Origin: Solirubrobacteraceae bacterium
GTDB taxonomy: Bacteria; Actinomycetota; Thermoleophilia; Solirubrobacterales; Solirubrobacteraceae
DNA: 64,000 nt
Reading direction: 5' to 3'
NCBI GenBank assembly: GCA_029263125.1
Contig: JAJCYD010000035.1
Coordinates: forward strand, 124,001 to 188,000
The position numbers were made by a program, and so were the translations under genes. This document shows, piece by piece, positions 48,633 through 62,043 of this stretch. Under the pieces are notes generated by a model that saw nothing but the letters and a program-made list of their open reading frames with translations, was not told the origin of the DNA and made no database searches. Within the stretch, counting starts at the first letter, position 1; every line of letters starts with the position of its first letter.

Positions 48633-48746
48633 CGTGAGCCGACCCACGTTGGGTAGTAGACGCATCGAAACGCCGATCATCGGGGTCCCAGCGGTGCTCC
48701 ACCATCGGTCAACGATGCGGTCTTGAATGAGGAGAGGAAACGATCG

Positions 48747-49817
48747 ATGCGTCCGCGCCTGTCGGTTCTGACGTTCGTTGGGTCCCTCGCCGCGGCGCTC
48801 GTGGTCGCGCTCGTGCCGAGCGCCGCCGGCACCGCCCAGGCCCACACCCCCACGTCCAAGATGGTCCGTCCCACGGTTCCGACGACGCCGAGCGTGAACA
48901 CGCGGCTGGGTCGCAAGCGCAACGGGACGCGAACGTTTCGCCTGACGGCGTCGCAGTTCACTCAACGCATCGCGAACTTCCCGATCAAGACCGCGAAGGT
49001 CTGGGGCTATGACAACTCCACCCCCGGCCCGACGCTCGTCGCCTACGAGGGCGAACGGCTGCGTGTCATCCTCTCAAACCGCCTCCCCGAAGCGACGACG
49101 ATCCACTTCCACGCCGCCGGCGCTCCCAACAGCAACGACGGCGTCGCGGGCATCAGCCAGCCCAAGCCGATCGCCGTGGGCGCGACGTACACCTACAGCT
49201 TCAAGCTGCGGCGGGCCGGCACCTTCGCCTACCACTCCCACACCCGCTCTGCCGTGCAGGAGCTTCGCGGGCTGGACGGGTTCCTGACGGTCCTACCGCG
49301 CCGCCAGCGGGCATCGGAGAAGGTCGACCGCGACTACGCCATGGCCCTGCAGCAGTTCGCTTTGCCTGAGGAGGGCGCGCTCGTCGAACCGTTTCCTCCT
49401 GGCTCGGGCGATTTCCCCTTCTCCACGATCAACGGCAAGACGGGTGACGCGTCGGGCGGGACGCTGAACATCAGGCTCGGCGACCGCGTCAAGCTCCGCC
49501 TCTACAACGCCTCCAACCTCTCGCACTCCATGCACCTGCACGGCATGCCCTTCGAGGAGGTCGCCAAGAACGGCTACGCGATCCCTCGATCCGCTCGATC
49601 ACGCGAGACCGTCGTCAACCTCGGCTCCGGCGAGTTCGTCGACATCGAGTTCAAGGTGACGCGGCCGGGCAACTGGATCTTCCACTGCCACGTTCCCCAC
49701 CACACCTCCAACAAGAAGCTCGATGGCTACAACGGCGCGCCCGTCGGCATGACGAGGGTCTTTCACACGATCGGCTACAAGCAGGTGTCGCCGAAGTACT
49801 TCTCCTTCGAGGGGTGA
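48747..49817 (+). CDS. Two-domain multicopper oxidase, exported
   Basis: Secreted laccase-type enzyme (356 residues) oxidising Cu(I) or phenolic substrates with O2. A signal peptide (VLTFVGSLAAALVVALVPSA) is followed by cupredoxin domain 1 with HFHAAGAPNSNDGVAGISQ and YHSHTRSAVQELRGLDGFL, and domain 2 with HSMHLHGMPFEEV and NWIFHCHVPHHTSNKKLDG. These supply the HxH, HxH, HxxHxH-like and HCHxxxHH ligand sets of the T1 and trinuclear copper sites. ATG 48747 with SD AGGAGAGGA (48730-48738) gives the proper signal peptide. Neighbouring DUF305, CDF and ArsR-type genes place it in a metal-resistance region. Confidence 0.92.
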   Translation: MRPRLSVLTFVGSLAAALVVALVPSAAGTAQAHTPTSKMVRPTVPTTPSVNTRLGRKRNGTRTFRLTASQFTQRIANFPIKTAKVWGYDNSTPGPTLVAYEGERLRVILSNRLPEATTIHFHAAGAPNSNDGVAGISQPKPIAVGATYTYSFKLRRAGTFAYHSHTRSAVQELRGLDGFLTVLPRRQRASEKVDRDYAMALQQFALPEEGALVEPFPPGSGDFPFSTINGKTGDASGGTLNIRLGDRVKLRLYNASNLSHSMHLHGMPFEEVAKNGYAIPRSARSRETVVNLGSGEFVDIEFKVTRPGNWIFHCHVPHHTSNKKLDGYNGAPVGMTRVFHTIGYKQVSPKYFSFEG

Positions 49818-49862: not shown

Positions 49863-50693
49863 CTACGGCCGTCGCGCGTCCGGCCGCGCGCCGTCGCGGT
49901 CCTCGACGCGGACGCCGTGCTCGGTCCCGGGCTCGCGCTGGACGGTACGAAAGGACTGCCAGGTGATACGCAGGATGACGAGCGTGATGACCATGCCGAT
50001 GAGCGGGTCGCCAACCTCCAGGCCCAGTGCGATGACGATCGCGCTGGCCACGACGGACAGGCTGACGAGGCCGTCGGTGCGGGCATGCGCGCCGTCGGCG
50101 ATCAGCGCTGGGCTATCCAGGCGCCTGCCGGCGCGCGTGCGGATCTGCGCGGCGATCTCGTTGCCGACGAAGCCGACGACGCCGGCGGCGGCCAGCGGCA
50201 AGAGATAGTCGATCTGCTCGGGGTTGACGAGCCGTTCGATCGACTGCCACAGCGCCACGCAGGCGCTCACGAAGATCGCCGCGACGACGAAGTACCCGGC
50301 GCGCTTCTCGGCCTTGAAGGAGCGCAGCAGGAACGCGATCCCCACGGGGATAGCCGTGAGGGCGTCGCCGAAGTTGTGGATCAGGTCGGCGAGCAGCGCG
50401 ACGCTGCCGGTCAGCAGGAAGACGCCGACCTGCAGGATCGCCGTGATCAGCAGGACGAGCAGGCTCCATGCGACCGCGCGCAGGCCCGCCCGCGAGGACA
50501 GGATCGAGCGCGCGACGAGCCCGTGGCTGTGGCCGTGCCCGCCGTGGTCGTGGCCGTGCCCACCATGGGCATGGTCACGGCCGAGGCCGGAGTCGTGCCC
50601 ACCGTGGTCGCGGCCGTGGCCGTCCTCGGCGCCGTGGTCGTGGCCGTGATCGCCCGCGGTCGCGTGGTCGTGTCCGGCTGCTCGGGCGCTCAC
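49863..50693 (-). CDS. CDF-family metal exporter with His-rich N-terminus
   Basis: Cation diffusion facilitator (CzcD/ZitB type) exporting Zn, Co or similar ions by proton antiport. The 276-residue protein opens with a very His/Asp/Gly-rich stretch of about 60 residues (HDHATAGDHGHDHG and HGHDHGGHGHSHG), then six TM segments with the metal motifs HNFGDALTA (HxxxD, TM2) and HARTDGLVS (HxxxD, TM5). It has a short C-terminal tail, without the usual cytoplasmic dimer domain. The GTG start at 50693 overlaps the ArsR-type repressor stop (GTGA), so exporter and repressor are one operon. Confidence 0.94.
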   Translation of the reverse strand: MSARAAGHDHATAGDHGHDHGAEDGHGRDHGGHDSGLGRDHAHGGHGHDHGGHGHSHGLVARSILSSRAGLRAVAWSLLVLLITAILQVGVFLLTGSVALLADLIHNFGDALTAIPVGIAFLLRSFKAEKRAGYFVVAAIFVSACVALWQSIERLVNPEQIDYLLPLAAAGVVGFVGNEIAAQIRTRAGRRLDSPALIADGAHARTDGLVSLSVVASAIVIALGLEVGDPLIGMVITLVILRITWQSFRTVQREPGTEHGVRVEDRDGARPDARRP

Positions 50694-51064
50694 GATGCCT
50701 GCCCGGCCGCGTCGGCCGCGGGCCCATGCGCACCGAGGCGCAGGTGCTGGACGTGGAAGATCGCCTGGTCGAGCAGCTCGGCGACGTGCGAATCGTGCAG
50801 GTCATAGATGACCTGCTTGCCTCGGCGCTCTCCGACCACGAGGCCGAGGTGACGTAGCTGGCGGAGCTGATGTGAGACGGCCGAGGCCTCCATGCCGACG
50901 GCGTCGGCGAGCTCGGCGACCGCGCACGGGCCGCCGTCCTTCAGGCGACCGAGGATCTGCACCCGGCTCGGCGTCGAAAGGATCTGCATTCGCTCGGCTA
51001 TCAGCTGCGCCGTCTCACCATCGACGGCCGTCCTCGCGGTCATGCCCTGAACTCCGTGACTCAT
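50690..51064 (-). CDS. ArsR/SmtB-family metal-sensing repressor (CzrA-like)
   Basis: The 124-residue winged-helix repressor has AERMQILSTPSRVQILGRLK, CAVAELADAVGMEASAVSHQ (recognition helix) and LGLVVGERRGKQVIYDL. Its last helix reads DSHVAELLDQAIFHVQH, an exact D-x-H-x10-H-x-x-H match to the alpha-5 zinc/cobalt site of SmtB and CzrA. It should release DNA when Zn or Co binds and so induce the CDF exporter in the same operon. ATG 51064 lies 8 nt after TATCAT, inside its own operator. The metal is inferred from family knowledge. Confidence 0.93.
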   Translation of the reverse strand: MSHGVQGMTARTAVDGETAQLIAERMQILSTPSRVQILGRLKDGGPCAVAELADAVGMEASAVSHQLRQLRHLGLVVGERRGKQVIYDLHDSHVAELLDQAIFHVQHLRLGAHGPAADAAGQAS

Positions 51065-51090
51065 CTGAACGCATGATAGTCCGTTCAGAT
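51063..51090 (-). promoter_or_regulatory. Operator of the ArsR/SmtB-type repressor
   Basis: ATCTGAACG-N10-CGTTCAGAT is a perfect 9-bp inverted repeat of the TGAAC/GTTCA type bound by SmtB-like repressors. It covers the TATCAT promoter box (51073-51078) and the start codon of the repressor gene, so binding would shut off the whole exporter operon. Confidence 0.8.
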
Positions 51091-51107
51091 GTTCAGCCTG
51101 GCGAGCT

Positions 51108-52607
51108 TCAGCCGCTCAGCATCGTCGCCTTCTCCGCGAGGCGCAGCAGCGGCTCGGCGGCTAGGCCGAATGCCACGGTCGCGACCGCGGTGAGGCCGAG
51201 CACGACGGCGATCGGCGTTGGCCGGACCACCCAGGTACGTGGGACGCCGGGTTCGGCTTCGGCTGGCGCGTCGAGGACGGCCGGGGAGATGACGCGCAGG
51301 TAGTAGTAGAGCGAGATCACGGTGTTGACGACGGCGACGACCGCCAGCCAGCTCTGTCCCGCGTCGATCGACGCCTTGAACAGCTCGAGCTTGCCGACAA
51401 ACCCCGCCAGCGGCGGCAGGCCGAGCAGCGAGAGAAACGAGAGCACGAGCACGACCGTCCACCAGGGATGGGTTCGTCCCAGCCCCTTGAAGGCGTCGAT
51501 GTCGACCGAGCGCCGTTCGCGCTGGACGGCGGCGACGACGGCGAAGGCGCCGAGGTTCATCGCCGCGTAGGCCATGGCGTAGTACACGAGGGCCGCAAGT
51601 CCCTGGTCTGAGCCGTTGATGGCGGCGACGCCCATCAGCAGGTAGCCGGATTGCGCGATCGACGAGTAGGCCAGCAGCCGCACGACGTTGCGCTGCGCGA
51701 GAGCGGCGACGTTGCCGACGGTCATCGTCAGCGCGGCGAGCACGGCGATCGCGGTCGCCCAGCCGGCGGTGTCCTCGGGCAGCGCGAGCGTCAGCACGCG
51801 AGCCAGAGCGGCAAGCCCGGCGAGCTTGGGCAGCACCGACATGTACGCGGCGACCGACACCGGAGCGCCGTCGTAGGCATCGGGCGTCCAGAAGTGAAAC
51901 GGCACGAGCGCGGCCTTGTAGCCCAGGCCGAAGATCACGAGCGCCGTCGACGCGATGACGTAGCCCTGCGGCGCGCTCTGAAGCTGCTCGCCGATGAGCC
52001 GCAGGTTCGTGGTGCCGGCCAGACCGAACCACCAGCTCAGGCCGTAGAGCATGAACGCCCCGGAGACGGTCCCGAAGATGTAGTACTTGATCGACGCCTC
52101 GTTGGAGCGCGTGGAGCGCCGCAGGTACCCCGTCATCACAAAGGTCGATAGGCCCAGCGCACCGATCGCCAGGCCCAGCAGGGCGGCGTCGGCGGCCATC
52201 ACGAGCATCACCGCCGACAGCGACGCGAACGTCAGCATCGCGTAGAACTCGCCCTCGCGTTCGGTGCCCGCCAGCGCGGGACGCGCGAGCGCGATGCACA
52301 ACGCGCCGCTGATCCCGATCAGTGCGGTCATCGTCAGCGACAGACCGTCGACGATGACGGTCTGCTCCATGATCGCCCGCACGCCGCGGTCAAGCCAGAC
52401 GGCGACGGCGAGCACGGCCGCGGTCACGTGAGCCCCCGCCGCCCAGGCGCCGATCAGGCCCTGGCGGTGGCGAGGCAGGACCATCGTGAGGAGCACCGCG
52501 ACGATCGCTCCGAGCGTCAGCGCGCCGATCGGCCACAGCCAGGCCAGCTCGCGCAGCATCATCTCCTCGATGCTCTTGGCCTGCTCCAGGGTGCCGCCGT
52601 TGGGCAC
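51108..52607 (-). CDS. nuoN: NADH-quinone oxidoreductase subunit N-like antiporter subunit
   Basis: Antiporter-type membrane subunit of complex I, 499 residues and about 14 TM. The channel Lys/proline region YKAALVPFHFWTPDAYDGAP and VSVAAYMSVLPKLAGLAALA is kept, as are LLAYSSIAQSGYLLMGVAAI and LSLLGLPPLAGFVGKLELFK. The conserved TM5 Glu (GLELLSL in typical NuoN) appears replaced: the segment reads LLGLAIGALGLSTFVMTGYL. It is the last gene of the nuo-like operon, 3 bases after nuoM. The GTG at 52607 is the likely start. Confidence 0.92.
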   Translation of the reverse strand: MPNGGTLEQAKSIEEMMLRELAWLWPIGALTLGAIVAVLLTMVLPRHRQGLIGAWAAGAHVTAAVLAVAVWLDRGVRAIMEQTVIVDGLSLTMTALIGISGALCIALARPALAGTEREGEFYAMLTFASLSAVMLVMAADAALLGLAIGALGLSTFVMTGYLRRSTRSNEASIKYYIFGTVSGAFMLYGLSWWFGLAGTTNLRLIGEQLQSAPQGYVIASTALVIFGLGYKAALVPFHFWTPDAYDGAPVSVAAYMSVLPKLAGLAALARVLTLALPEDTAGWATAIAVLAALTMTVGNVAALAQRNVVRLLAYSSIAQSGYLLMGVAAINGSDQGLAALVYYAMAYAAMNLGAFAVVAAVQRERRSVDIDAFKGLGRTHPWWTVVLVLSFLSLLGLPPLAGFVGKLELFKASIDAGQSWLAVVAVVNTVISLYYYLRVISPAVLDAPAEAEPGVPRTWVVRPTPIAVVLGLTAVATVAFGLAAEPLLRLAEKATMLSG

Positions 52608-52610
52608 CGT

Positions 52611-54092
52611 TCAGCCTCCGCCGGCCAGCCAGCTCACCGAGCGGATGAGGTCCAGCGCCAAGCGCGGGTAGAGGCCCAGCGCGACGAACAGCCCCACGAG
52701 CGGCACGACGGCCACGAGCTCGCGCGCGCCCAGGTCGGCGAGCTTGCGCAGCCCCTTGGGGGTCGTGCCCATGAACGCGCGCTGCAGCGCGAGTAGAAAC
52801 AGCGCGGCGGTGATGACGATCCCCAGCACGGCGACGGCGGCGATCGCCGGGTAGACGTCGAAGGTCCCGAGGAAGATCAACAGCTCCGCCGGGAACTGCG
52901 CCAGCCCCGGCAGTCCGAGGCTGGCGAAGAACGTCAGCGCGACGAGGCTTCCGTAGACCGGCATCGGGCGCAGCAGACCGCCGAGCTTGCCGAGGTCGCG
53001 GGTCTTCGCGCGATCCTTGATGAAGCCCGCCAGGAAGAACAGCGTCGCCGTGACGAGGCCGTGGGCGACCATCTGCAGCACGGCGCCGTCGACCGCCAGC
53101 TCGCGTGCGCGCGAGGAGATGCCCGACGCCGCCGCCGCGGCGACGGCGATGACGACATAGCCCATGTGGTTGACGGAGGTGTAGGCGATCATCCGCTTGA
53201 GGTCGGTCTGGGCGAGCGCCACGAGCGCGCCATAGAGCACCGAGACCAGGCCCAGCAGGGCGATCGGCAGCGCGTACGTCGCGAAGGCGTCGGGCAGCAT
53301 CTGCAGGTTCACGCGGACCAGGCCGTAGGTGCCCATCTTCAGCAGCACCCCGGCGAGCAGCACCGATCCCGCGGTCGGCGCCTCGACGTGAGCGGCCGGA
53401 AGCCACGTGTGAAACGGGACGATCGGGATCTTGATCGCGAAGCCGACGAAGAACGCGAGAAACACGAGCGTCGCGCCGAGCCCTCCGCCGGCCACCGGAT
53501 GCTCGGTCGCCAGCCGCGTCATGTCGAAGGTCTGCGGATCTGAGGACAAGAACAGCGCGATGATCCCCAGCAGGATCGGCAGCGACCCGATCAGCGTGTA
53601 GAGAAAGAACTTCAGCGCGGCGTAGCGGCGGCGCTCTTCGCCCCACAACGCGATCAGGAAGTACATCGCCACGAGGCTCACGTCGAAGGCGACATAGAAC
53701 AGGATGAAGTCCTCCGCGAGAAAGAACGCGAGCGTCGAGCCCTCAAGCAGCAGCAGCAGCCCCGCGGCCGCGCGCGTCATCGGCCGCGGGCCGACCCCGT
53801 AGCCGATCGCCGCGGCCGACAGCACGACGGTCAGCAGCGCGAGCACGAGCGCCATCCCGTCGACGCCCAGGCGCCAGGCGACGTCGATGCTGGGAATCCA
53901 GCGTGCCTGCTCGACGAGCTGCATCCCCTCCGCGGTGTCAAAGCGCACGACGGTCGCGACGAGCGCGATCGCGCTGACGGCCGTCGCGCCCAGCGCGACG
54001 ACGTGGGGCAGCCTGCTCGCCCGCGCCGGCAGCGCCGCGCACAGGGCCGCGGCGATCAGCGGGACGACGACGGCGACGGTGAGCCAGGGCAC
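52611..54092 (-). CDS. nuoM: NADH-quinone oxidoreductase subunit M-like antiporter subunit
   Basis: Proton-pumping antiporter subunit, 493 residues. It has FILFYVAFDVSLVAMYFLIA (TM5, with Asp for the usual Glu of FFE), FAIKIPIVPFHTWLPAAHVE (TM7 Lys), APTAGSVLLAGVLLKMGTYG, LKRMIAYTSVNHMGYVVIAV and FASLGLPGLAQFPAELLIFL. Most NuoM core residues are therefore present. GTG 54092 is chosen because it lies 2 bases after the nuoL stop and gives the usual N-terminal TM; upstream the open frame runs antisense-free but without homology. Confidence 0.93.
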   Translation of the reverse strand: MPWLTVAVVVPLIAAALCAALPARASRLPHVVALGATAVSAIALVATVVRFDTAEGMQLVEQARWIPSIDVAWRLGVDGMALVLALLTVVLSAAAIGYGVGPRPMTRAAAGLLLLLEGSTLAFFLAEDFILFYVAFDVSLVAMYFLIALWGEERRRYAALKFFLYTLIGSLPILLGIIALFLSSDPQTFDMTRLATEHPVAGGGLGATLVFLAFFVGFAIKIPIVPFHTWLPAAHVEAPTAGSVLLAGVLLKMGTYGLVRVNLQMLPDAFATYALPIALLGLVSVLYGALVALAQTDLKRMIAYTSVNHMGYVVIAVAAAAASGISSRARELAVDGAVLQMVAHGLVTATLFFLAGFIKDRAKTRDLGKLGGLLRPMPVYGSLVALTFFASLGLPGLAQFPAELLIFLGTFDVYPAIAAVAVLGIVITAALFLLALQRAFMGTTPKGLRKLADLGARELVAVVPLVGLFVALGLYPRLALDLIRSVSWLAGGG

Positions 54093-54094
54093 GA

Positions 54095-55918
54095 TCAGAT
54101 CAGCGCCGTGAGCGTGAGGATGAAGCCCAGCGCAGCGGCACCGAGCACCGCGTCGCGCAGGTAGTGATGCAGGTGGCCGCTCTGCACCCGCCGCAGGTTC
54201 TCGCCGCCGCGACCGACCGCATGCGCGACGCCGTCCACCGACGGATCGATGGCCCGGCGTTCGATCCACTCCTGGCTGCGCGCGAGCGCGAGCCCGCCGC
54301 GGCCGATGCCATCGACCGCGGCGTCCAGGACGCGCCGCTCGAAGCGGTCGAGCAGCACCGCGGCGACGCGCAGCGGACGCTGCACGGTCCAGCGCAGGAC
54401 GTCGTCGACGTAGAGCTGGCGGCGCAGCGCATCGACCACGCCCGCGGGCACCGCGATCGTGGCGATCACCGCCGCGGCGCCGAGGGCGATCGCGGCCAGC
54501 GAGAGCAGCACGCTGATCAGCGACGTCGGCAGCGACGGCTCGTCGAGCAGCCGCGCGAGCGGCCCGCCGGCGGCGCCGAGCAACACCGACCCCACGACTG
54601 TCGCGCCCACGCCCGTGAGCATCAGGCTGCGGGCCGGGTTCGCAGCGACCGCCTCGCCGCGAGCGCCGCGACGGTCCCACAGGATCAGCGCGGGGCGCAG
54701 CAGGTAGGCCGCCGCGCCCGCTCCCGCCACGAGCACCAGCGCGAACCAGGCGACGCGGTGCTCGGCGGCGGCGGCGATGTGGTCCTTGCTCCAGAACCCG
54801 GCCAGCACGGGCACCGCGGCGATGCTCAGCGCACACAGCGCGAAGGCCGCGAACACCCGGCGGTCGTCGCGGCCGGCGCCGCGCAGGCCCTCCAATTCGG
54901 TCGTGTCGCGCGCGTGGCCGAACATCCCGGCGGTGAGAAACAACCCCGCCTTGCCGGCCGCATGCGCGACGAGGTGAAAGAGGGCGACCGCCGGCCCACC
55001 GGCGGCGAGGCCGACGAACATCAGCCCGAGCTGGCTGGTCGTCGAACCGGCCAGCACGCGCTTGAGATCGGTCTGACACAGCGCGATGCCCGCGCCCGCC
55101 ACCGCCGTGATCGCCCCGACCCAGCCGGCGACCTCAAGCGGCCAGCCGGCGACGAGGGTGTGCGAGCGCATCAGCAGGTAGACGCCGGCGGCGACCATCG
55201 TGGCCGAGTGCAGCAGCGCGCTGACGGGCGTCGGGCCGGCCATCGCGGCAGACAGCCAGCTCTGAAGCGGCGCCTGGGCGCTCTTGCCGACCGCCGCCAC
55301 GACCAGGCCGAGCCCGACCAGCGCGCCGAGCGTGCCGTCCGGGCGATCGGTGCCGAACGCCAGCGTGCCGTTGGCGGCGAACAACGCCAGCACCGCGACG
55401 TAGAAGCCGACGTCGGCGCTGCGCGTCGTCAGGAACGCGCGGACCGCCGCGGGCGCCGCGGCCGAATCGTCGCGCGAGTAGGCGATCAGCCGCGCGGACG
55501 CGACGCCAACCAGCTCCCAGAAGACCAGCAGCGCCAGGTAGCCGTCGGCGAGCACGAGCCCCTGCATCGCCGCCAGAAACGCCAGCAGCCCCGCCAGCGC
55601 GGTCGGCCGGCGGGGGTCGCCGGCGAAGTACCCGACGGCGTACACGACGACGAGCAGTCCGACGGTCGCGACGGTCGCCGACATCGCCGTCGACAGGCCG
55701 TCCATGCGCAGCCCGACTTCCAGGCCCGCGCCCGGCAGCCACGCGAAGCCCGACCGCGCCGTCGAGCCGCCGGCGGCCTGCGCGAGCAGGACCCAGACCG
55801 GGACCGCGGCGGCGCCGGCGGCGACGATCGCGCCGACCCCGCCGGTCCGCGGAACGAGCCGCACGACCGGCGCCCCCAGCAGCGGGAGCGCGACGGCGAG
55901 CCACAGCAGGACGCTCAT
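54095..55918 (-). CDS. nuoL: NADH-quinone oxidoreductase subunit L-like antiporter subunit
   Basis: Largest antiporter subunit, 607 residues, slightly short. Motifs: LALLVFWELVGVASARLIAY (TM5 Glu kept), VGKSAQAPLQSWLSAAMAGP (TM7 Lys), TPVSALLHSATMVAAGVYLL, LKRVLAGSTTSQLGLMFVGL and LFHLVAHAAGKAGLFLTAGM. The C-terminus (about 480-590) holds the lateral-helix region and a final TM. Its ATG shares one base with the nuoK stop (TGATG). It belongs to the operon lacking the hydrophilic arm genes. Confidence 0.94.
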   Translation of the reverse strand: MSVLLWLAVALPLLGAPVVRLVPRTGGVGAIVAAGAAAVPVWVLLAQAAGGSTARSGFAWLPGAGLEVGLRMDGLSTAMSATVATVGLLVVVYAVGYFAGDPRRPTALAGLLAFLAAMQGLVLADGYLALLVFWELVGVASARLIAYSRDDSAAAPAAVRAFLTTRSADVGFYVAVLALFAANGTLAFGTDRPDGTLGALVGLGLVVAAVGKSAQAPLQSWLSAAMAGPTPVSALLHSATMVAAGVYLLMRSHTLVAGWPLEVAGWVGAITAVAGAGIALCQTDLKRVLAGSTTSQLGLMFVGLAAGGPAVALFHLVAHAAGKAGLFLTAGMFGHARDTTELEGLRGAGRDDRRVFAAFALCALSIAAVPVLAGFWSKDHIAAAAEHRVAWFALVLVAGAGAAAYLLRPALILWDRRGARGEAVAANPARSLMLTGVGATVVGSVLLGAAGGPLARLLDEPSLPTSLISVLLSLAAIALGAAAVIATIAVPAGVVDALRRQLYVDDVLRWTVQRPLRVAAVLLDRFERRVLDAAVDGIGRGGLALARSQEWIERRAIDPSVDGVAHAVGRGGENLRRVQSGHLHHYLRDAVLGAAALGFILTLTALI

Positions 55919-56226
55919 CAGCCCTTGAGCTCGTGCATGTCGTCGATCTCGGCGGTGCGGCTGTGGCGAAAGGCGCTGATGACCAGCGCGAAGCCGACGG
56001 CGGCCTCGACGGCCATCAGCGTCATGAGGATCAGCACGAAGAACGCGCCCGACGTCGCGTCCGGCCAGCTGTAGCGCAGGAAGCCGACGACGTTGAGCAT
56101 CGCCGCGCCGAGCATCAGCTCGACGCCCATCATCACCATGATCGTGTTCGTCTGGCCCAGCACGCCGTACAGGCCGATCGCGAACATCAGCCCTGCGGCG
56201 ACGAGCACGACGGGCAGCGAGATCAC
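55918..56226 (-). CDS. nuoK: NADH-quinone oxidoreductase subunit K-like
   Basis: Three-TM subunit of 102 residues. Both proton-path Glu residues are present: GVELMLGAAMLNVVGFLRYS (TM2) and LMAVEAAVGFALVISAFRHS (TM3). The GTG start overlaps the nuoJ stop as GTGA. Length and spacing are canonical. Confidence 0.94.
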   Translation of the reverse strand: MISLPVVLVAAGLMFAIGLYGVLGQTNTIMVMMGVELMLGAAMLNVVGFLRYSWPDATSGAFFVLILMTLMAVEAAVGFALVISAFRHSRTAEIDDMHELKG

Positions 56227-56762
56227 GCCTCGCCCTTCCCGGCCGCGCCGATCTGAGCGAAGCGGCCGCCGTGCTTGGCCAGCAGCACGCCGCCGACCAT
56301 CGCGAACAGGATCGTCATCGCGGCGAACAGGAACGTCAGCATCGAGCGGCCCATCACCTCAAAGCCGATCGCCCGCACGTCCGGCGCGTCGCGGCCGACC
56401 ACGCGCGCCGGCCAGTCGGTGAGGACCGCGACCACCGCCAGGCCGATCCCGACGGCGACCGCCAGCGACGCCGAACGACGCTTGTCGTGGGTCATGTCCA
56501 TTCCCATCAGCCCGCCCGGGTCGGGCATGAACATGACCATGAAGAACACCATGATCACCATCTCGCCGCTCATCATCAGCAGCTGCAGGACCCCGAGGAA
56601 CTCGCTCGCCAGCGCCAGGAACACGAGGCCCTCGATGCCAAGCGACGCCAGCAGCAGCAGCCCCGCGCGCGCCATCGACGCGGTGCGAAACACGTAGACG
56701 CCGGTCACGAGCATGATCGCGACCGCCGGCCAGAACACGAGCGCTGTGGCGAGGTCGCTCAT
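56223..56762 (-). CDS. nuoJ: NADH-quinone oxidoreductase subunit J-like
   Basis: Five-TM subunit of 179 residues. The TM3 region, which in standard NuoJ carries YaGAI, here reads FLGVLQLLMMSGEMVIMVFF, so the conserved Tyr is lost and a Glu appears. A Met/Pro/Gly-rich loop (MFMPDPGGLMGMDMTHDKRR) follows. Identity rests on position, size and TM pattern. ATG 56762 overlaps the nuoH stop. Confidence 0.85.
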   Translation of the reverse strand: MSDLATALVFWPAVAIMLVTGVYVFRTASMARAGLLLLASLGIEGLVFLALASEFLGVLQLLMMSGEMVIMVFFMVMFMPDPGGLMGMDMTHDKRRSASLAVAVGIGLAVVAVLTDWPARVVGRDAPDVRAIGFEVMGRSMLTFLFAAMTILFAMVGGVLLAKHGGRFAQIGAAGKGEA

Positions 56763-57667
56763 CGGTAGAAGAGCAGGGTCACGAGGCCGGCCCACACGAT
56801 CGCGACGAGCGCCAGGGGGTTGGCGACCTTCCACGCCAGCTCCAGCGCACGGTCGATCTCCATGCGGGGCACACGCCCGCCCATCCACAGCATCCCCGCC
56901 GCCACCGCCGCGGTCTTCGCCACCATCCACACCGCGGCGGGCAGCAGCGGGCCGTGCCAGCCCGAGAAGAACAGCACGACGGTCATCCCCGAGACGGCCA
57001 CCAGCAGCACGCGCCGCGCCAGCGCGACGAGCGCGGCGTCCAGGCCGCGATACTCCGAGAACACCCCGCCGCCGAGCTCCTCATCGCAGTGCGCGACGTC
57101 AAACGGCGCCAGGAAGCAGACCGCGAGCGCCGCCGGCACCCACAGCGCCAGCGCCAGCGGCTGAACGAGCGCCATCGGAACGGCGTGCTGCACCTCGACG
57201 ATGTCCGACGGGCGCAGCGAACCCGCGGGAGCCGCGACGGCCGTGATCACCATCGCCAGCGGCATCGCGTAGGCGAGCATCAGCGCCAGCCAGCGAAACG
57301 CGCCCAACACCGTCAGCGCACGCCCCGCTCCCCACCCGGCCATGAACACCGCCGGCGTGACGTAGGCCAGCGCCGCGGCGAACCCGATCGCGCCGGTGGA
57401 CAGGTCGATCCCGCGAAAGCCCGGCGCCCACGGCACGAAGGCCAGCGCGGCGACCGCGGCCACCAGCAGCAACCCGGGCGCGAGGTGATACAGCCACCCG
57501 TCGCGCACTTGCGGAGCACGCAACGGCTGTCGCAGGGTTCTCGACACCGACGTCAGCACGGCCTGCGGCGAGACGCGCAACCCGGACACGACCTGCTCAA
57601 GCAGCGCCGCGCATCCCGCCCCGACGAGCGCGACGGCGAGCACGACGAAGGGCGTGAGGTCGCTCAC
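56759..57667 (-). CDS. nuoH: NADH-quinone oxidoreductase subunit H-like, divergent
   Basis: Eight-TM subunit of 302 residues that in complex I forms the quinone tunnel. Recognisable are FLAPFDVAHCDEELGGGVFS with EYRGLD (standard PFDLPEAExELVAG-x-TEYSG), MAGWGAGRALTVLGAFRWLA and GGRVPRMEIDRALELAWKVA (standard LPRxRxDxLMxxxWK). The N-terminal ERKxLGRxQxRxGPN motif is absent, replaced by LRVSPQAVLTSVSRTLRQPL. Several quinone-tunnel acidic residues are therefore changed. GTG 57667 overlaps the stop of the NuoD-like gene. Confidence 0.85.
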   Translation of the reverse strand: MSDLTPFVVLAVALVGAGCAALLEQVVSGLRVSPQAVLTSVSRTLRQPLRAPQVRDGWLYHLAPGLLLVAAVAALAFVPWAPGFRGIDLSTGAIGFAAALAYVTPAVFMAGWGAGRALTVLGAFRWLALMLAYAMPLAMVITAVAAPAGSLRPSDIVEVQHAVPMALVQPLALALWVPAALAVCFLAPFDVAHCDEELGGGVFSEYRGLDAALVALARRVLLVAVSGMTVVLFFSGWHGPLLPAAVWMVAKTAAVAAGMLWMGGRVPRMEIDRALELAWKVANPLALVAIVWAGLVTLLFYR

Positions 57668-58995
57668 GACGCCATCCGCCAGGCCGACAGGTCAAACGAC
57701 GCCAGCGTCGCCAGGGCGCTGGACCACTCGCGTCCGACCATCGATGCCTGGGCAGCGCACAGCGCGGGCTCGGCGCCGGGGGCGGTGAGGCGCCACCCGT
57801 CGTCTGTTCGCCGCGCGCGGAGCGGACCGCGCGGTCCTTCGACCAGCGAGGCCCCCGCGCGCGTGGGGCTTGCCGGCAGCTCGGCGCCCGACACGACCGC
57901 CGCGTGAGCCCCGAGCGCCATGTCGACGGCGACGACGGCCTCGCTCGCGCGCACGACGGTCCGCGCGAGCGCGTCGCCCGGCTCGCCGACGACCGGCTCG
58001 AACCCCAGCGCGCCATAGCGGTCGTCGCCGATGCGAGCGTCATCCTCGCCGCCGCAGGCTCGTGCCGGCGGACCGCGCAGACCCAGCTCGTCGACCTCCT
58101 GCCGGGTGATGGGCGCGATGCCCGCGAGGCGCAGGCGCAGGCTCCGGCTCCCCGCCACGAGATCGCGCAGGCGCGTGAGATCCACGCGCGCGAGCGACAG
58201 CGCGTCGGCGAGCGATGCCGGGGCCTCCACGGGTGCGTCGACCTCGAGGTCGACGATCGCCTGGCCGCGTGCGGTCAGCAGCGACGACAGCGCGTCGGTG
58301 CACGCGTTCACCGGCCGCCGCCACCCCAGCAGCCGGGCGAAGGACCGCAACCAGGCCGTGTGGCTGACGGCCCGCTCGATCTCGACGGCGGCGATCCAGG
58401 ACCAGCCCGCTGGCCCGTCCGCGACGCCGGCGCCGGCGTCGCGGATGGCGAGATTCCACGCGATCGGCGACAGCAGGTCGGCGGGCATCGGACGGTCTTG
58501 AGCCTGCGTCGCGACGAGCATCGCGCTCACGTGGCTCTCGGCCACCACGTCCCCATCCAGCGTGGCGCTGACGACGAGGCCACCGGGCAGCGGCGTGGCC
58601 AGCGGGCCGTAGACGACGTCCATGGACTCCATCACGAGCCCGTCGGCCGACGGATCGCCGACGATGGCCATCATGTCCCCGTGGTCGGCGTCCTCGTCGC
58701 CGTCGTGCGACGTGTCGCCGTGGCCGTGGCCACCGTCGTGTTCGGGCGGCGCATCGGCCGCCGCCATGACGGGTGCGAGCTCCCGCATGCCGGCGTCGGC
58801 CGCCAGCCGCTCGCGATAGCGAGCCAGCGGTGCCGCGAGGACATCGGGAAGCAGGCCCGGGGCCACCACGCCGCGCGCCGCGGCCGGCGCGAACACCGGC
58901 CGTACGCCCTCGCGCTCGAGATCCACGCCCCATGCCGCCCAGGACTGCTCGTCTGGAATGACGACCACCGGCAGCATGACGGCTGGCCGGCTCAT
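57664..58995 (-). CDS. Degenerate NuoD-like subunit with His/Asp-rich insert
   Basis: The 443-residue protein occupies the place of the hydrophilic genes. Residues 125-300 resemble NuoD/hydrogenase large subunit: VYGPLATPLPGGLVVSATLD (standard GPxHPxxHG-xxR), WSWIAAVEIERAVSHTAWLR (standard EKxxExRxx-x-R) and SFARLLGWRRPVNACTDALS. The quinone-site HG and other hallmark residues are missing. The N-terminal 85 residues (LPVVVIPDEQSWAAWGVDLE) are not NuoD-like and are followed by HDGGHGHGDTSHDGDEDADH, a likely metal-binding insert. No CxxC pairs for Fe-S clusters or NiFe are present. ATG 58995 overlaps the nuoA stop as ATGA. Confidence 0.65.
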   Translation of the reverse strand: MSRPAVMLPVVVIPDEQSWAAWGVDLEREGVRPVFAPAAARGVVAPGLLPDVLAAPLARYRERLAADAGMRELAPVMAAADAPPEHDGGHGHGDTSHDGDEDADHGDMMAIVGDPSADGLVMESMDVVYGPLATPLPGGLVVSATLDGDVVAESHVSAMLVATQAQDRPMPADLLSPIAWNLAIRDAGAGVADGPAGWSWIAAVEIERAVSHTAWLRSFARLLGWRRPVNACTDALSSLLTARGQAIVDLEVDAPVEAPASLADALSLARVDLTRLRDLVAGSRSLRLRLAGIAPITRQEVDELGLRGPPARACGGEDDARIGDDRYGALGFEPVVGEPGDALARTVVRASEAVVAVDMALGAHAAVVSGAELPASPTRAGASLVEGPRGPLRARRTDDGWRLTAPGAEPALCAAQASMVGREWSSALATLASFDLSAWRMAS

Positions 58996-59315
58996 GCCCA
59001 CTCAAGCGCCCGTTCGCGCCACGCGTAGGCGATGCCCAAGCCGAGCACGGTCAGAAAGAAGCCGATCTCCGCGTATGCGAAGAACCCGAGCTCGCGAAAC
59101 ACGACGGCCCACGGGTACATGTAGGCCATCTCCATGTCAAACGCCAGGAACAGCAGCGCGACGGTGTAGTAGCGGACGTGGAAGCGCGGCCAGGACGGCT
59201 GCTCCCCCGGGTCGGACACCACCCTGCCGCGGCGTGCCAGCGCGATCGCGTACCCAACGCCGACCAGCGCGGCCACCATCGCCAGCAGCACGAAGAAGAG
59301 CTCGAGCGCGTTCAT
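58992..59315 (-). CDS. nuoA: NADH-quinone oxidoreductase subunit A-like
   Basis: Three-TM subunit of 107 residues. YYTVALLFLAFDMEMAYMYP matches the conserved FY-x-VA-x-LF-x-xFDxE-x-x-x-x-YPW with both acidic residues. The loop Cys found in many NuoA (SGxxCG) is absent; it reads DPGEQPSWPRFHVR. ATG 59315 follows TAGCTT (minus strand, 59323-59328) by 7 nt, so it begins the leaderless eight-gene operon. Confidence 0.93.
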   Translation of the reverse strand: MNALELFFVLLAMVAALVGVGYAIALARRGRVVSDPGEQPSWPRFHVRYYTVALLFLAFDMEMAYMYPWAVVFRELGFFAYAEIGFFLTVLGLGIAYAWRERALEWA

Positions 59316-59382: not shown

Positions 59383-59892
59383 TCAACGAGCCGGCAGCGG
59401 GCAGGCGATCGCGCCGCGCAGCCGCACCGTCAAGCCGGCCAGCAGCAGGGCGATGCTCAGCACGCCGAGCACCGGCTGCAGCGGCGCCCAGTAGCTCAGG
59501 GCGCCGCTTACGCCGATCAGGCCGACCACGAGCTTGTTGCAGATCGGGCAGCCGATCGCGAACGTCGACAGCAACGTCGCTCCCATCGTGCGGCCACTGC
59601 GGTCCGTGCCCGCCGGCCGCGCGCCGGCGACCCGGACGTAGGTCGCCGCGGTCAGGCCGACCAGCACCGCGGAGATCGCCCACACCGGATAGTCCCACCA
59701 GGTGACAGGCGTCATCCGCGTGTAGAAGCTCGTGCTCAGGACCCCCGTCGGCACGCCCATGAGCACAGCCGCCAGCACGGCCGCGGCGCCCGCCACCCAA
59801 AACCGCCGCGGCGGCCATGCCCGGATCGACGCAAGCGCGCTCCCGATCCCCGTCACACCCCTCACCGGATCGAAGACGTTCGTGGTCTGCAC
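59383..59892 (-). CDS. Four-to-five-TM membrane protein with CPxC motif
   Basis: The 169-residue protein has TM segments (FWVAGAAAVLAAVLMGVPTG, YPVWAISAVLVGLTAATYVR, LQPVLGVLSIALLLAGLTVR) and a conserved-looking LLSTFAIGCPICNKLVVGLI, a CPxC motif at the start of a TM, as in redox or copper-binding membrane proteins. I recall similar proteins next to BlaI/M56 pairs in actinobacteria but no family name. GTG 59892 lies 7 nt after TAGGAT, which is part of a BlaI-type operator (59901-59917). It is divergent from blaI. Confidence 0.75.
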   Translation of the reverse strand: MQTTNVFDPVRGVTGIGSALASIRAWPPRRFWVAGAAAVLAAVLMGVPTGVLSTSFYTRMTPVTWWDYPVWAISAVLVGLTAATYVRVAGARPAGTDRSGRTMGATLLSTFAIGCPICNKLVVGLIGVSGALSYWAPLQPVLGVLSIALLLAGLTVRLRGAIACPLPAR

Positions 59893-59900
59893 GAACGGAA

Positions 59901-60001: not shown

Positions 60002-60394
60002 GTGGCAGATGTGACGCCGATCCTGGGCGACGTGCAGGCGCAGATCATGGCGGCGATGTGGCGGCTTGAGGCCGGCACGGTCGACCAGGTTCGCAATGCG
60101 CTGCCGCCGCGATATCAGGGCGCGTACACGACCGTGCAGACGATGCTCAACCGCCTCTCCGAGCGAGGATTTCTCACCCGTAGGCGAGCTGGCCATGCGA
60201 TCATCTACCGGCCGAAGATCAGCGAGACGCAATACCTCTCGCGCACGATCCAGAGCACCCTCGCGTCCGCATCGCCCGACGCCCGACACGCCGCGCTCGC
60301 GCAGCTCATCGGTGGGTTGCAGGACCACGAGCGCGTTGCCCTCATGCACCTGACCGACGAGGTCGACGCTGCCCGCAAGGCCAAGCGCCCATGA
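60002..60394 (+). CDS. BlaI/MecI/CopY-family transcriptional repressor
   Basis: The 130-residue winged-helix repressor has LGDVQAQIMAAMWRLEAGTV, DQVRNALPPRYQGAYTTVQT and MLNRLSERGFLTRRRAGHAI (recognition helix and wing), then YRPKISETQYLSRTIQSTLA and a C-terminal dimer region. In the family a membrane metallopeptidase cleaves or inactivates the repressor; that partner is the overlapping next gene. GTG 60002 follows GATACT (59989-59994) by 7 nt; an in-frame ATG at 59948 would add 18 residues. Its probable operator TCCTAC-N5-GTAGGA is found at three places in the window. Confidence 0.92.
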   Translation: MADVTPILGDVQAQIMAAMWRLEAGTVDQVRNALPPRYQGAYTTVQTMLNRLSERGFLTRRRAGHAIIYRPKISETQYLSRTIQSTLASASPDARHAALAQLIGGLQDHERVALMHLTDEVDAARKAKRP

Positions 60395-61344
60395 GCGTGC
60401 TGATCGCGTTGCTCGTCGCCACGGCGATCGCCGCGCCGCATGTGCTGCGTTTGGAGAACGCGCATCCGGCCAGCGCCGCGCTGATCTGGTTCGAAGCCGT
60501 CTGCCTGCGCGCGCTCGTGGCGCTGTTCGTGGCGGTGTTCGTCGTGTTCTACATACCGGCGACTGCCCTGTTTGCGCTCGTGACCCGGTGGTGCTGGCAC
60601 ACGGTGCTGCCCGTGCTGACGGCACATGTGGGATTCAGCGGCCACAGCATCGGTGATCTCGCGCTGCTTGCTCCGATGCTCGCGCTGGCATTGTCCCTCG
60701 TCACGGTCAGCATCGGGCTGTGGCACGCGATGCACACGGTGAGCACGTGGGTGCGGCGCAGCACGATCGGCTCCCGGCCCGACGGCAGCCTGCTCGTCGG
60801 CGAGCGGGACATCGTGGTCGGCGCCGCTGGGCTGCGCCGCCCCCGCGTCATCATCTCGGCCGGCGCGTTGGCGACCTTCGATGACGAGGAACTCGAAGCG
60901 AGCCTCGCCCACGAGCGCGGGCACATCGCGCGTCGCCACCGCTTCGTGCTCGTCATCGCCGCGATCTCACGCGCTCTTGCCAGGCCGATCCCGGGAACAC
61001 GATGCGCGGTCGCGGAGTTGACCTTTCATCTCGAGCGCGACGCCGACCGCTGGGCCCTGGAACGTCGGCACGACCCCGCGGCGCTGGCCAGCGCGATCTG
61101 CAAGGCGGCGACGCCCCCCCAGCGGGCCTGCGGCGCGCTGCAGGCCCTGGGCGGCGGTGCGGTCATCCGCCGTGTGCGTCAGCTGTTGGACCACGATGGA
61201 CCACCCCGCCGCACGGCACGTCTTGACCTGGTTGCAGGCGCCATGCTGGTCCTCGTCGTCGGACTCGGCGCGCTGGCGCCATCCGTGACGCTCGCAGGGA
61301 TCACCGCGGCGACGCAGGGCGCCGTGGTGCAGTGCCCAACCTGA
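60391..61344 (+). CDS. M56/M48-type membrane metallopeptidase (BlaR1-like without sensor domain)
   Basis: The 317-residue protein has four or more TM segments and a zinc site HExxH: LEASLAHERGHIARRHRFVL (HERGH), with a likely third ligand Glu in AELTFHLERDADRWALERRH. It lacks the extracellular penicillin-binding sensor of BlaR1, as is usual for actinobacterial partners of BlaI. ATG 60391 overlaps the repressor stop. It probably relays an envelope signal by proteolysis leading to BlaI release. Confidence 0.9.
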   Translation: MSVLIALLVATAIAAPHVLRLENAHPASAALIWFEAVCLRALVALFVAVFVVFYIPATALFALVTRWCWHTVLPVLTAHVGFSGHSIGDLALLAPMLALALSLVTVSIGLWHAMHTVSTWVRRSTIGSRPDGSLLVGERDIVVGAAGLRRPRVIISAGALATFDDEELEASLAHERGHIARRHRFVLVIAAISRALARPIPGTRCAVAELTFHLERDADRWALERRHDPAALASAICKAATPPQRACGALQALGGGAVIRRVRQLLDHDGPPRRTARLDLVAGAMLVLVVGLGALAPSVTLAGITAATQGAVVQCPT

Positions 61345-61438: not shown

Positions 61439-61735
61439 ATGGCTCGAACGCAGACGATGGTGCAGCTCACACAGGAGCTGCTCGAGTCCCTGGACACCAT
61501 CGCCGAGCAACGTTCGATCTCGCGATCGGCGCTGATTCGGGAGTTCGTGCTCGACGGCCTGCGCCAGGGCGAGGCCTCCGCGATCGGCGAGCGCATCGCC
61601 GACGGCTACCGCAGGATCCCTCAGGCACACCCCGACGAGTGGGGCGACCCCCTCCTGTCAGCGGACGTCGCGACCGGCGAGCTGCTGGCCCGCCTGGACG
61701 CCGAAGAGCGCGCCGCAGGTCACGATTCCTGGTGA
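61439..61735 (+). CDS. Ribbon-helix-helix antitoxin (MazE/CopG type)
   Basis: The 98-residue protein has an RHH DNA-binding N-terminus (QTMVQLTQELLESLDTIAEQ, RSISRSALIREFVLDGLRQG) and an acidic C-terminal half (HPDEWGDPLLSADVATGELL) that should wrap the toxin. ATG 61439 follows TACGGT (61427-61432) by 6 nt. The stop overlaps the toxin start as GTGA, the usual layout of a toxin-antitoxin operon. Confidence 0.9.
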   Translation: MARTQTMVQLTQELLESLDTIAEQRSISRSALIREFVLDGLRQGEASAIGERIADGYRRIPQAHPDEWGDPLLSADVATGELLARLDAEERAAGHDSW

Positions 61736-62043
61736 AGCGCGGCGACGTCTGGTGGTATGACCACCCTCGAGCCGGGCGCAGGCCCTTCCTGATCCTGACC
61801 CGCGACGAGGCGATCGGCGTGCTCAGCCAGGTTCTTGCGGTCCCCGCGACACGGACCATCCGCGAGATCCCTACGGAGGTCCCAATCGGGCGAGCCGAGG
61901 GGATGCCATCGGCGTGCTGCCTGGCGCTTGACAACGTCACGGTGATTCGCCGCGCACTGTGCACCGAGCGCATCACGCGGCTCCCGCCGAGCACGATGCG
62001 CGAGGTCTGCGCCGCGCTCGCGGTGGCCACGGCTTGCATGTGA
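61732..62043 (+). CDS. MazF/PemK-family mRNA interferase toxin
   Basis: Ribosome-independent endoribonuclease of 103 residues. The family pattern is clear: VKRGDVWWYDHPRAGRRPFL (KRGDVWxxxxP-x-GRRPxL), ILTRDEAIGVLSQVLAVPAT and SACCLALDNVTVIRRALCTE (the conserved N-V-T and downstream catalytic region). It lies immediately after and overlaps its antitoxin gene. Conserved residues look intact, so it is probably active. Confidence 0.93.
   Translation: MKRGDVWWYDHPRAGRRPFLILTRDEAIGVLSQVLAVPATRTIREIPTEVPIGRAEGMPSACCLALDNVTVIRRALCTERITRLPPSTMREVCAALAVATACM

What the first reader, a model, noticed from the sequence alone, without database searches (positions are those of the whole stretch)
51108..59315. 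Complex I-like membrane arm operon without any electron-input genes
Eight genes overlap or nearly touch in the order nuoA, nuoD-like, H, J, K, L, M, N, on one strand behind one leaderless promoter. nuoB, C, E, F, G and I are absent and no room is left for them. Standard bacterial complex I, and even the 11-subunit ferredoxin type, needs NuoB, C, D and I to carry electrons. NuoH and NuoJ are also strongly changed at quinone-site positions. This looks like a proton- or ion-translocating module driven by an unknown input, or one that shares or replaces the peripheral arm.
Basis: partly seen in the sequence, partly recalled or inferred. Interest (0 to 1): 0.82.

Follow-up and report, generated by a model that had tools for sequence, protein, structure and literature searches.

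The report
Copper-linked relative of respiratory complex I
A conserved eight-gene relative of the respiratory proton pump has lost all of its electron-handling parts, gained metal-binding and methionine-rich parts, and travels with copper-resistance genes in bacteria of two phyla, so it is probably a proton-driven copper pump that had been taken for a broken or 'marine' complex I.

Summary
The eight-gene operon is real (51108-59315, minus strand, order A-D-H-J-K-L-M-N) and is not a stray membrane arm. The same genome carries a separate canonical nuo operon. The same eight genes in the same order occur in 35 of 396 sampled Actinomycetota genomes and on plasmids of Alpha- and Gammaproteobacteria; NuoH of all of them forms one clade (support 100/100).

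The 'NuoD-like' protein is a NuoB-NuoD fusion: a NuoB remnant without the iron-sulphur cysteines, a metal-binding linker (HMBD domain and/or His/Met-rich repeats), and a NuoD remnant without the quinone site. And the missing input is probably copper: CsoR, CopZ, Cu(I)-ATPase, multicopper oxidase and CopB genes are significantly close. CsoR lies within 10 kb in 20 of 36 genomes against 0.5 expected.

The antiporter subunits keep their proton-channel residues. The coupling channel has been rebuilt with invariant methionines: six in NuoJ TM3 (32/32 sequences), three in NuoA, two in NuoK. Canonical complex I has V/L/Y/A at these places.

Best reading: a proton-motive-force-driven Cu(I) efflux machine (mechanism inferred, about 0.5). 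Marinobacter, Salinispora and Kocuria papers saw pieces of it; none described this family.

The parts
58992..59315 (-). NuoA-like subunit (ATG at 59315)
   Evidence: PF00507 E 1.5e-23; 66-75% identical to the close relatives
59118..59141 (-). NuoA motif FDMEMAYM: the two acidic residues of canonical FD[IV]E are kept, three methionines replace I/V/L
   Evidence: M66 and M69 31/31, M64 29/31 in the family, 0/12 in canonical NuoA
57664..58995 (-).
   Evidence: PF00346 E 3e-12; NuoB remnant in the family
58762..58977 (-). NuoB-derived N-terminal segment, no Fe-S cysteines
   Evidence: hhalign of family N-termini against NuoB: probability 96.6, E 4.9e-10 over the PRQAD...YDQM..PK stretch; in the window copy itself the motif is eroded
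58669..58752 (-). His/Asp-rich metal-binding linker (PPEHDGGHGHGDTSHDGDEDADHGDMM)
   Evidence: sequence; the same place holds HMBD domains (PF19335, E 1e-13 to 1e-22) in Rubrobacteraceae members and was annotated 'heavy metal-binding domain' on plasmids
57667..58644 (-). NuoD-derived domain without the HPxTHG and Tyr-87-region quinone elements
   Evidence: alignment with the genome's own canonical NuoD; PDB profile search
56759..57667 (-). NuoH-like subunit lacking the quinone-entry loop RYGPNRVG
   Evidence: PF00146 E 1e-47; loop missing in 32/32
56223..56762 (-). NuoJ-like subunit
   Evidence: PF00499 E 8e-16
56526..56576 (-). Methionine ladder in NuoJ TM3: M63 M64 E67 M68 M71 M75 M79
   Evidence: all 32/32 in the family; canonical V, Y, A, V/I, L, V, V/L; M64 aligns with E. 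coli Tyr59
56487..56501 (-). NuoJ M88-x-M90-x-H92 motif after TM3
   Evidence: 32/32 invariant
55918..56226 (-). NuoK-like subunit: E36 and E72 (window E74) kept, M30 and M71 gained
54095..55918 (-). NuoL-like antiporter subunit with all key channel residues
   Evidence: E144, K229, H254, K342, K399 (E. coli numbering) 30/30
52611..54092 (-). NuoM-like antiporter subunit
   Evidence: E/D144, K234, K265 28/28, E407 27/28 plus one D
51108..52607 (-). NuoN-like antiporter subunit
   Evidence: K247 and K395 27/27, K217 23/27 plus 4 E
50690..51064 (-). ArsR-family regulator directly downstream
   Evidence: PF01022 E 2e-12; 43 nt after nuoN
49863..50693 (-). His-rich cation-efflux (CDF) transporter, overlaps arsR
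   Evidence: PF01545 E 1e-22
48723..49817 (+). Multicopper oxidase
   Evidence: PF07732 E 1.6e-32, PF07731 E 2e-22

Best explanation
The operon encodes a complex-I-derived machine that handles Cu(I). Shown: it is a conserved, horizontally mobile eight-gene module; it has lost NuoC/E/F/G/I, the four NuoB cysteines, the quinone elements of NuoD and the quinone-entry loop of NuoH; its antiporter subunits keep the proton-channel residues; its NuoA/J/K coupling region carries invariant methionines that canonical complex I lacks; its NuoB-NuoD fusion carries metal-binding sequence; and it sits in copper-resistance loci. Inferred: cytosolic Cu(I), from CopZ or free, is captured by the metal-binding linker of the B-D fusion, enters the former quinone/E-channel region at the NuoD-NuoH-NuoA interface, and moves along the methionine ladder of NuoJ TM3 (MxxxM repeats as in CTR1, and methionine relays as in CusA). 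Proton flow through NuoL/M/N and NuoK, running in the inward direction, supplies the energy to expel Cu(I). Neighbouring multicopper oxidase, CopB and Cu-ATPase handle the same metal in the envelope. It works like a proton-driven copper efflux pump but is built from the membrane arm of complex I.
For: Same order A-D-H-J-K-L-M-N in every complete locus; 35/396 Actinomycetota genomes; NuoH of the family one clade, 100/100, Actinomycetota and Proteobacteria mixed. HMBD in the fusion, E 5.7e-13, 2e-14 and 8e-23. NuoB remnant without ligands. Methionine substitutions: NuoJ ten columns 32/32, NuoA two columns 31/31, NuoK two columns 32/32 that are V or A in canonical; TM3 methionines lie on one helix face (p about 0.02). 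Channel residues kept. CsoR within 10 kb in 20/36 genomes (expected 0.47, p 2e-29; outside Rubrobacteraceae 4/18, p 2e-5), multicopper oxidase 12/36 (p 5e-15). The neighbouring regulators have the Cu(I)-CsoR C...HxxxC ligands and the ATPases CPC/YN motifs. In L035 copZ and nuoA overlap by 4 nt in one directon with csoR and copA. On plasmids next to copA oxidase, copB, CusA and Cu ATPase. In Marinobacter a NuoADHJKL cassette is co-expressed with copper genes (PMC8233155).
Against: No experiment shows copper transport or binding by this complex. 12 of 36 genomes have neither CsoR nor multicopper oxidase within 10 kb. The window's own genome has no CsoR nearby; its neighbours are ArsR, CDF and a multicopper oxidase. 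Copper loci usually already have a P-type exporter, so a second pump must be justified. Direction and stoichiometry are guesses. The structure prediction of the fusion was poor (pLDDT 44), and no multi-subunit model could be made, so the claim that the methionines face one path rests on homology to E. coli NuoJ TM3.
Confidence: 0.5

Rival explanations
1. Copper-gated ion pump or antiporter: Cu(I) binding in the B-D fusion and methionine channel acts as a sensor that opens H+ or Na+/H+ exchange to restore pH or ion balance under copper stress; copper itself is not transported.
For: Channel residues kept, metal-binding linker, copper loci. A sensing role needs binding only.
Against: A ladder of six methionines along a membrane helix plus methionines in NuoA and NuoK is more than one sensor site needs.
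Confidence: 0.2
2. Copper-redox-driven pump: oxidation of Cu(I) supplies electrons and energy that drive outward ion pumping (the suggestion of Eddie et al. 2021 for Marinobacter).
For: Co-expression with copper genes in Marinobacter (PMC8233155); frequent multicopper oxidase neighbours.
Against: No Fe-S ligands in the NuoB remnant, no quinone elements in NuoD or NuoH, no cytochrome or cupredoxin subunit in the operon, so no electron acceptor is visible.
Confidence: 0.12
3. Marine or salt adaptation: a partial NDH-1 that pumps Na+ or H+ for osmotic and pH balance (the reading for the Salinispora 'partial 2' operon and for Kocuria flava).
For: PMC3314556 and PMC6002675 report membrane-arm operons of matching gene content enriched in marine strains; many plasmid carriers here are marine.
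Against: Also on a plasmid of Arthrobacter sp. FB24 beside a multicopper oxidase. Does not explain HMBD, methionines or CsoR/CopA linkage. Identity of those operons with this family was not tested here by sequence.
Confidence: 0.08
4. It supplies an alternative membrane arm for the genome's own complex I or for a hydrogenase, borrowing NuoB/C/I from elsewhere.
For: A canonical NuoB exists in the same genomes; the NuoD domain profile is nearest to the MBH large subunit in the PDB.
Against: The NuoB position is filled by a fused remnant, the quinone parts are lost, and the module moves on plasmids as a closed eight-gene unit.
Confidence: 0.05
5. A decaying duplicate without function.
For: The NuoD and NuoB parts have lost catalytic residues.
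Against: Open frames everywhere, strict order, invariant new residues in 32/32 members, channel residues kept.
Confidence: 0.02

Closest known systems
Respiratory complex I (NDH-1, NuoA-N) and its 11-subunit ferredoxin form
   Same: Membrane arm A, H, J, K, L, M, N and a NuoD-derived subunit; channel residues kept
   Different: No NuoC, E, F, G, I; NuoB reduced to a cysteine-free segment fused to NuoD; quinone elements lost; metal-binding linker and methionine-rich NuoA/J/K gained
NuoADHJKL cassette in the copper region of Marinobacter atlanticus (PMC8233155)
   Same: Same kind of gene content within a copper-resistance region, co-expressed with copper genes; very probably this family
   Different: Described as one case, as lacking nuoMN; fusion, methionines, distribution and conserved order not reported; the authors suggested copper redox as the energy source. 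Sequence not compared here
'Partial 2' NDH-1 operon of Salinispora (PMC3314556) and partial NDH-1 operon of Kocuria flava S43 (PMC6002675)
   Same: Membrane-arm operon (nuoAHJKLMN in Kocuria, seven membrane genes in Salinispora), patchy, horizontally acquired, with proteobacterial relatives
   Different: Interpreted as marine Na+/H+ adaptation; no copper link drawn. Sequence not compared here
Mrp Na+/H+ antiporters
   Same: NuoL/M/N/K/J-type subunits working without electron transfer
   Different: Mrp lacks NuoH, NuoA and NuoD relatives and has MrpE/F/G
Membrane-bound hydrogenase MBH / Ech / Hyf
   Same: The NuoD domain is nearest to the MBH large subunit among solved structures (E 5e-22)
   Different: No [NiFe] or [4Fe-4S] cysteines; the membrane arm is the complex I type
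CusA (RND) and CTR1 copper transporters
   Same: Methionine relay / MxxxM in membrane helices; association with copper handling
   Different: Unrelated folds

Membership tests
Respiratory complex I (14 or 11 subunits) | NuoB with four cysteines for cluster N2 | tested here: not met
   N-terminal NuoB remnant lacks them
Respiratory complex I (14 or 11 subunits) | NuoC and NuoI present | tested here: not met
   absent in the window and in every relative examined
Respiratory complex I (14 or 11 subunits) | Quinone site: NuoD His/Tyr elements and NuoH entry loop | tested here: not met
   NuoD HPxTHG replaced; NuoH RYGPNRVG loop missing 32/32
Respiratory complex I (14 or 11 subunits) | Membrane arm A, H, J-N with channel residues | tested here: met
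Mrp antiporter | MrpE/F/G present, no NuoH/NuoA/NuoD | tested here: not met
   gene content
[NiFe] membrane-bound hydrogenase | CxxC pairs binding [NiFe] in the large subunit | tested here: not met
   no such pairs in the NuoD domain
Copper-resistance module | Genomic association with Cu(I)-specific genes | tested here: met
   CsoR and multicopper oxidase proximity, ligand motifs, plasmid copper loci
Copper-resistance module | Copper induction and copper phenotype | not testable with these tools
   only indirect RNA-seq from Marinobacter in PMC8233155
Cu(I) transporter (works like CusA/CTR1) | Methionine path through the membrane | tested here: inconclusive
   invariant methionine ladder found; no structure of the complex to show a continuous path

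The most novel reading that the evidence does not exclude
A previously unrecognised branch of the complex I superfamily, spread between phyla on plasmids, in which the quinone chamber and E-channel were converted into a methionine-lined Cu(I) path, so that the proton-pumping arm runs in reverse as a proton-driven copper exporter.
Probability: 0.45. Interest if true: 0.95.

Novelty: new variant of a known kind. Interest (0 to 1): 0.86.

Why it matters
How complex I couples chemistry in its arm to ion movement about 200 Angstrom away is a central open question. A natural relative that keeps the whole ion-moving arm and E-channel but replaces the electron chemistry by a metal ion would be a new tool for that problem. 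It would also be a new class of copper-resistance system, present on conjugative plasmids, and it would explain 'partial NDH-1' operons that have been read as marine adaptation since 2012.

Tried and rejected
Structure prediction of the B-D fusion from the four sequences allowed: mean pLDDT 44, not used. Promoter scan: no result. Considered and rejected: ordinary complex I with split genes (a separate canonical operon is present); a hydrogenase arm (the other NuoB-like hits of the genome look like [NiFe]-hydrogenase small subunits by their neighbours); a chance gene cluster. NCBIfam has no dedicated model: most window subunits score far below the curated Nuo cut-offs; K, M and N each pass a Nuo model. 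Literature searches for a copper-translocating complex I relative found only the three papers named.
Full report
THE OBSERVATION. Eight open reading frames lie on the minus strand between 59315 and 51108 with overlapping or nearly touching ends. Pfam identifies them as NuoA, a NuoD-domain protein, NuoH, NuoJ, NuoK and three antiporter-type subunits L, M, N. No nuoB, C, E, F, G or I gene is among them. The leaderless promoter cannot be confirmed; a consensus scan upstream finds nothing.

THE SAME GENOME HAS AN ORDINARY COMPLEX I. Contig C47 carries the canonical genes A to L in order with the start of M at the edge of the stretch that was fetched. The remaining NuoB-family hits of the genome look like [NiFe]-hydrogenase small subunits by their neighbours. 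In all 27 well-assembled genomes that carry the eight-gene module, a NuoB is found elsewhere. So the module is an additional system and does not supply a missing membrane arm.

A CONSERVED, MOBILE EIGHT-GENE UNIT. A NuoJ profile from three copies finds 35 of 396 sampled Actinomycetota genomes in 22 of 236 genera, but only 6 of 146 genomes of the window's own family: widespread but patchy. Every locus that could be read in full shows A-D-H-J-K-L-M-N in this order, without B, C, E, F, G or I. Named carriers include Conexibacter sp. DBS9H8 and Candidatus Siliceabacter maunaloa. Fifteen plasmid records hold the diagnostic NuoJ: Sulfitobacter, Paracoccus, Roseovarius, Thioclava, Nitratireductor, Halomonas, Vreelandella, Rubrobacter and Arthrobacter sp. 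FB24; of the ten whose surroundings were read, nine show the whole operon, and the Vreelandella record is annotated as many short fragments. NuoH of 32 members forms one branch with full support, apart from canonical NuoH and hydrogenase homologues, with proteobacterial plasmid copies nested among actinobacterial ones. This indicates one origin and transfer between phyla.

THE 'NuoD-LIKE' GENE IS A NuoB-NuoD FUSION WITH A METAL-BINDING LINKER. A NuoB model rang weakly inside this gene in many genomes. Profile-profile comparison of 16 family N-termini with 13 canonical NuoB proteins gives probability 96.6 and E 4.9e-10 over the PRQADL...YDQM..PK segment. An independent PDB search with the family profile hits NuoB/NDUFS7 chains at positions 36-89 (E 8e-9) and NuoD or MBH large subunits at 184-453 (E 5e-22). 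None of the four cluster N2 cysteines is kept. Between the two parts sits a linker: HMBD heavy-metal-binding domains (PF19335, E 5.7e-13, 2e-14 and, two copies, 8e-23) in Rubrobacteraceae, or His/Asp/Met-rich repeats, as in the window (HDGGHGHGDTSHDGDEDADHGDMM), or a GEGMMGGxPYGRPMAMT motif. RefSeq annotates several plasmid copies only as 'heavy metal-binding domain-containing protein'. In the window's own copy the NuoB part is eroded; the statement rests on the family.

WHAT IS LOST AND WHAT IS KEPT. Lost: the HPxTHG and Tyr-bearing quinone elements of NuoD, the RYGPNRVG loop of NuoH in 32/32, and mostly the NuoH glutamate E157. Kept: NuoL E144, K229, H254, K342, K399 in 30/30; NuoM E/D144, K234, K265 in 28/28; NuoN K247, K395 in 27/27; NuoK E36 in 32/32 and E72 as E or D in 32/32. 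The ion-moving machinery is intact and the redox machinery is gone.

THE METHIONINE LADDER. Of the 29 most conserved columns of family NuoJ, ten are methionines present in 32/32. In TM3 they are M63, M64, M68, M71, M75 and M79, with a new glutamate E67; twelve canonical NuoJ proteins have V/I, Y, V/I, L, V, V/L and, at 67, A there. M64 aligns with E. coli Tyr59, a conserved TM3 residue. NuoA gains M64, M66 and M69 around its conserved acidic residue and H49 nearby; NuoK gains M30 and M71, near its two buried glutamates. The TM3 residues fall on one helix face (p 0.014-0.025). From established knowledge of copper transporters, MxxxM repeats and methionine relays are the signature of Cu(I) passage in CTR1 and CusA; here the resemblance is to how they work, not membership in those families.

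COPPER CONTEXT. Within 10 kb of the module, CsoR-family regulators occur in 20 of 36 genomes against 0.47 expected, multicopper oxidases in 12 of 36 against 0.47 expected; outside Rubrobacteraceae the figures are 4 of 18 for each against about 0.2 expected (p about 2e-5 and 4e-5). These p-values treat genomes as independent and gene positions as uniform. The neighbouring CsoR proteins carry the Cu(I) ligands C...HxxxC, and the ATPases the CPC and YN motifs of Cu(I) pumps. In L035 copA, csoR, copZ and nuoA lie in one directon, copZ and nuoA overlapping by 4 nt. On plasmids the module lies beside copA-type oxidase, copB, CusA or Cu-ATPase genes. In the window a multicopper oxidase, an ArsR regulator and a His-rich CDF transporter follow nuoN.

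LITERATURE. Eddie et al. 2021 (PMC8233155) saw a NuoADHJKL cassette inside a copper-resistance region of Marinobacter atlanticus, co-expressed with it, and proposed that copper redox drives ion pumping. Penn and Jensen 2012 (PMC3314556) and the Kocuria flava study (PMC6002675) classed a partial NDH-1 operon as marine adaptation. A 2025 HMM survey of complex I (PMC12361115) does not mention copper. None describes the family, the fusion, the methionines or the general copper linkage. Whether those operons belong to this family was judged from gene content, not sequence.

MECHANISM. The most economical reading is a proton-motive-force-driven Cu(I) exporter: the linker captures Cu(I), the former quinone/E-channel region accepts it, the methionine ladder conducts it, and inward proton flow through the antiporter subunits pays for it. 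Steps shown: parts present or absent, conservation, copper context. Steps inferred: binding, direction, coupling, stoichiometry. Rivals are a copper-gated ion exchanger, a copper-redox pump, and salt adaptation.

VERDICT. It is a new variant of the complex I superfamily with a probable copper function, partly glimpsed before but, in the papers searched, not recognised.

Noticed in passing
window 51062-51091: Inverted repeat CATCTGAAC...GTTCAGATG between nuoN and the ArsR gene, overlapping the arsR start; looks like an ArsR operator, so arsR-CDF may be regulated separately from the nuo genes.
   Followed up: no
window 60011-61344: BlaI-type repressor and M56/M48 peptidase pair (PF03965, PF01435) divergent from the operon; similar BlaI/M56-like pairs sit near the operon in L026 and L039.
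   Followed up: partly
window 61439-62043: RHH protein and PemK/MazF-type toxin, a type II toxin-antitoxin pair.
   Followed up: no
window 59383-59895: Small membrane protein with a CPIC motif directly upstream of nuoA, same strand, no Pfam family.
   Followed up: no
L012 5548-8738: A [NiFe]-hydrogenase-type small subunit directly next to a putative PAS-domain protein and no large subunit seen in the stretch: possibly a sensor or an orphan.
   Followed up: no
L028 and L029 (relatives G007, G006): Hyf/Ech-like membrane hydrogenase-type clusters in relatives of this genome, distinct from the module.
   Followed up: partly
L040, L044, L045, L046, L056 NuoJ C-termini: NuoJ of several members ends in a His/Gly-rich tail (e.g. 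HGGHGGHGGH), a second likely metal-binding extension.
   Followed up: no
L041/L055 and L042 (Rubrobacter tropicus): Two copies of the module in one genome, one on the plasmid and one on the chromosome.
   Followed up: no
L061 9204-9979 (Rubrobacter marinus plasmid): nuoH annotated in two pieces, so this copy may be frameshifted or misassembled.
   Followed up: no
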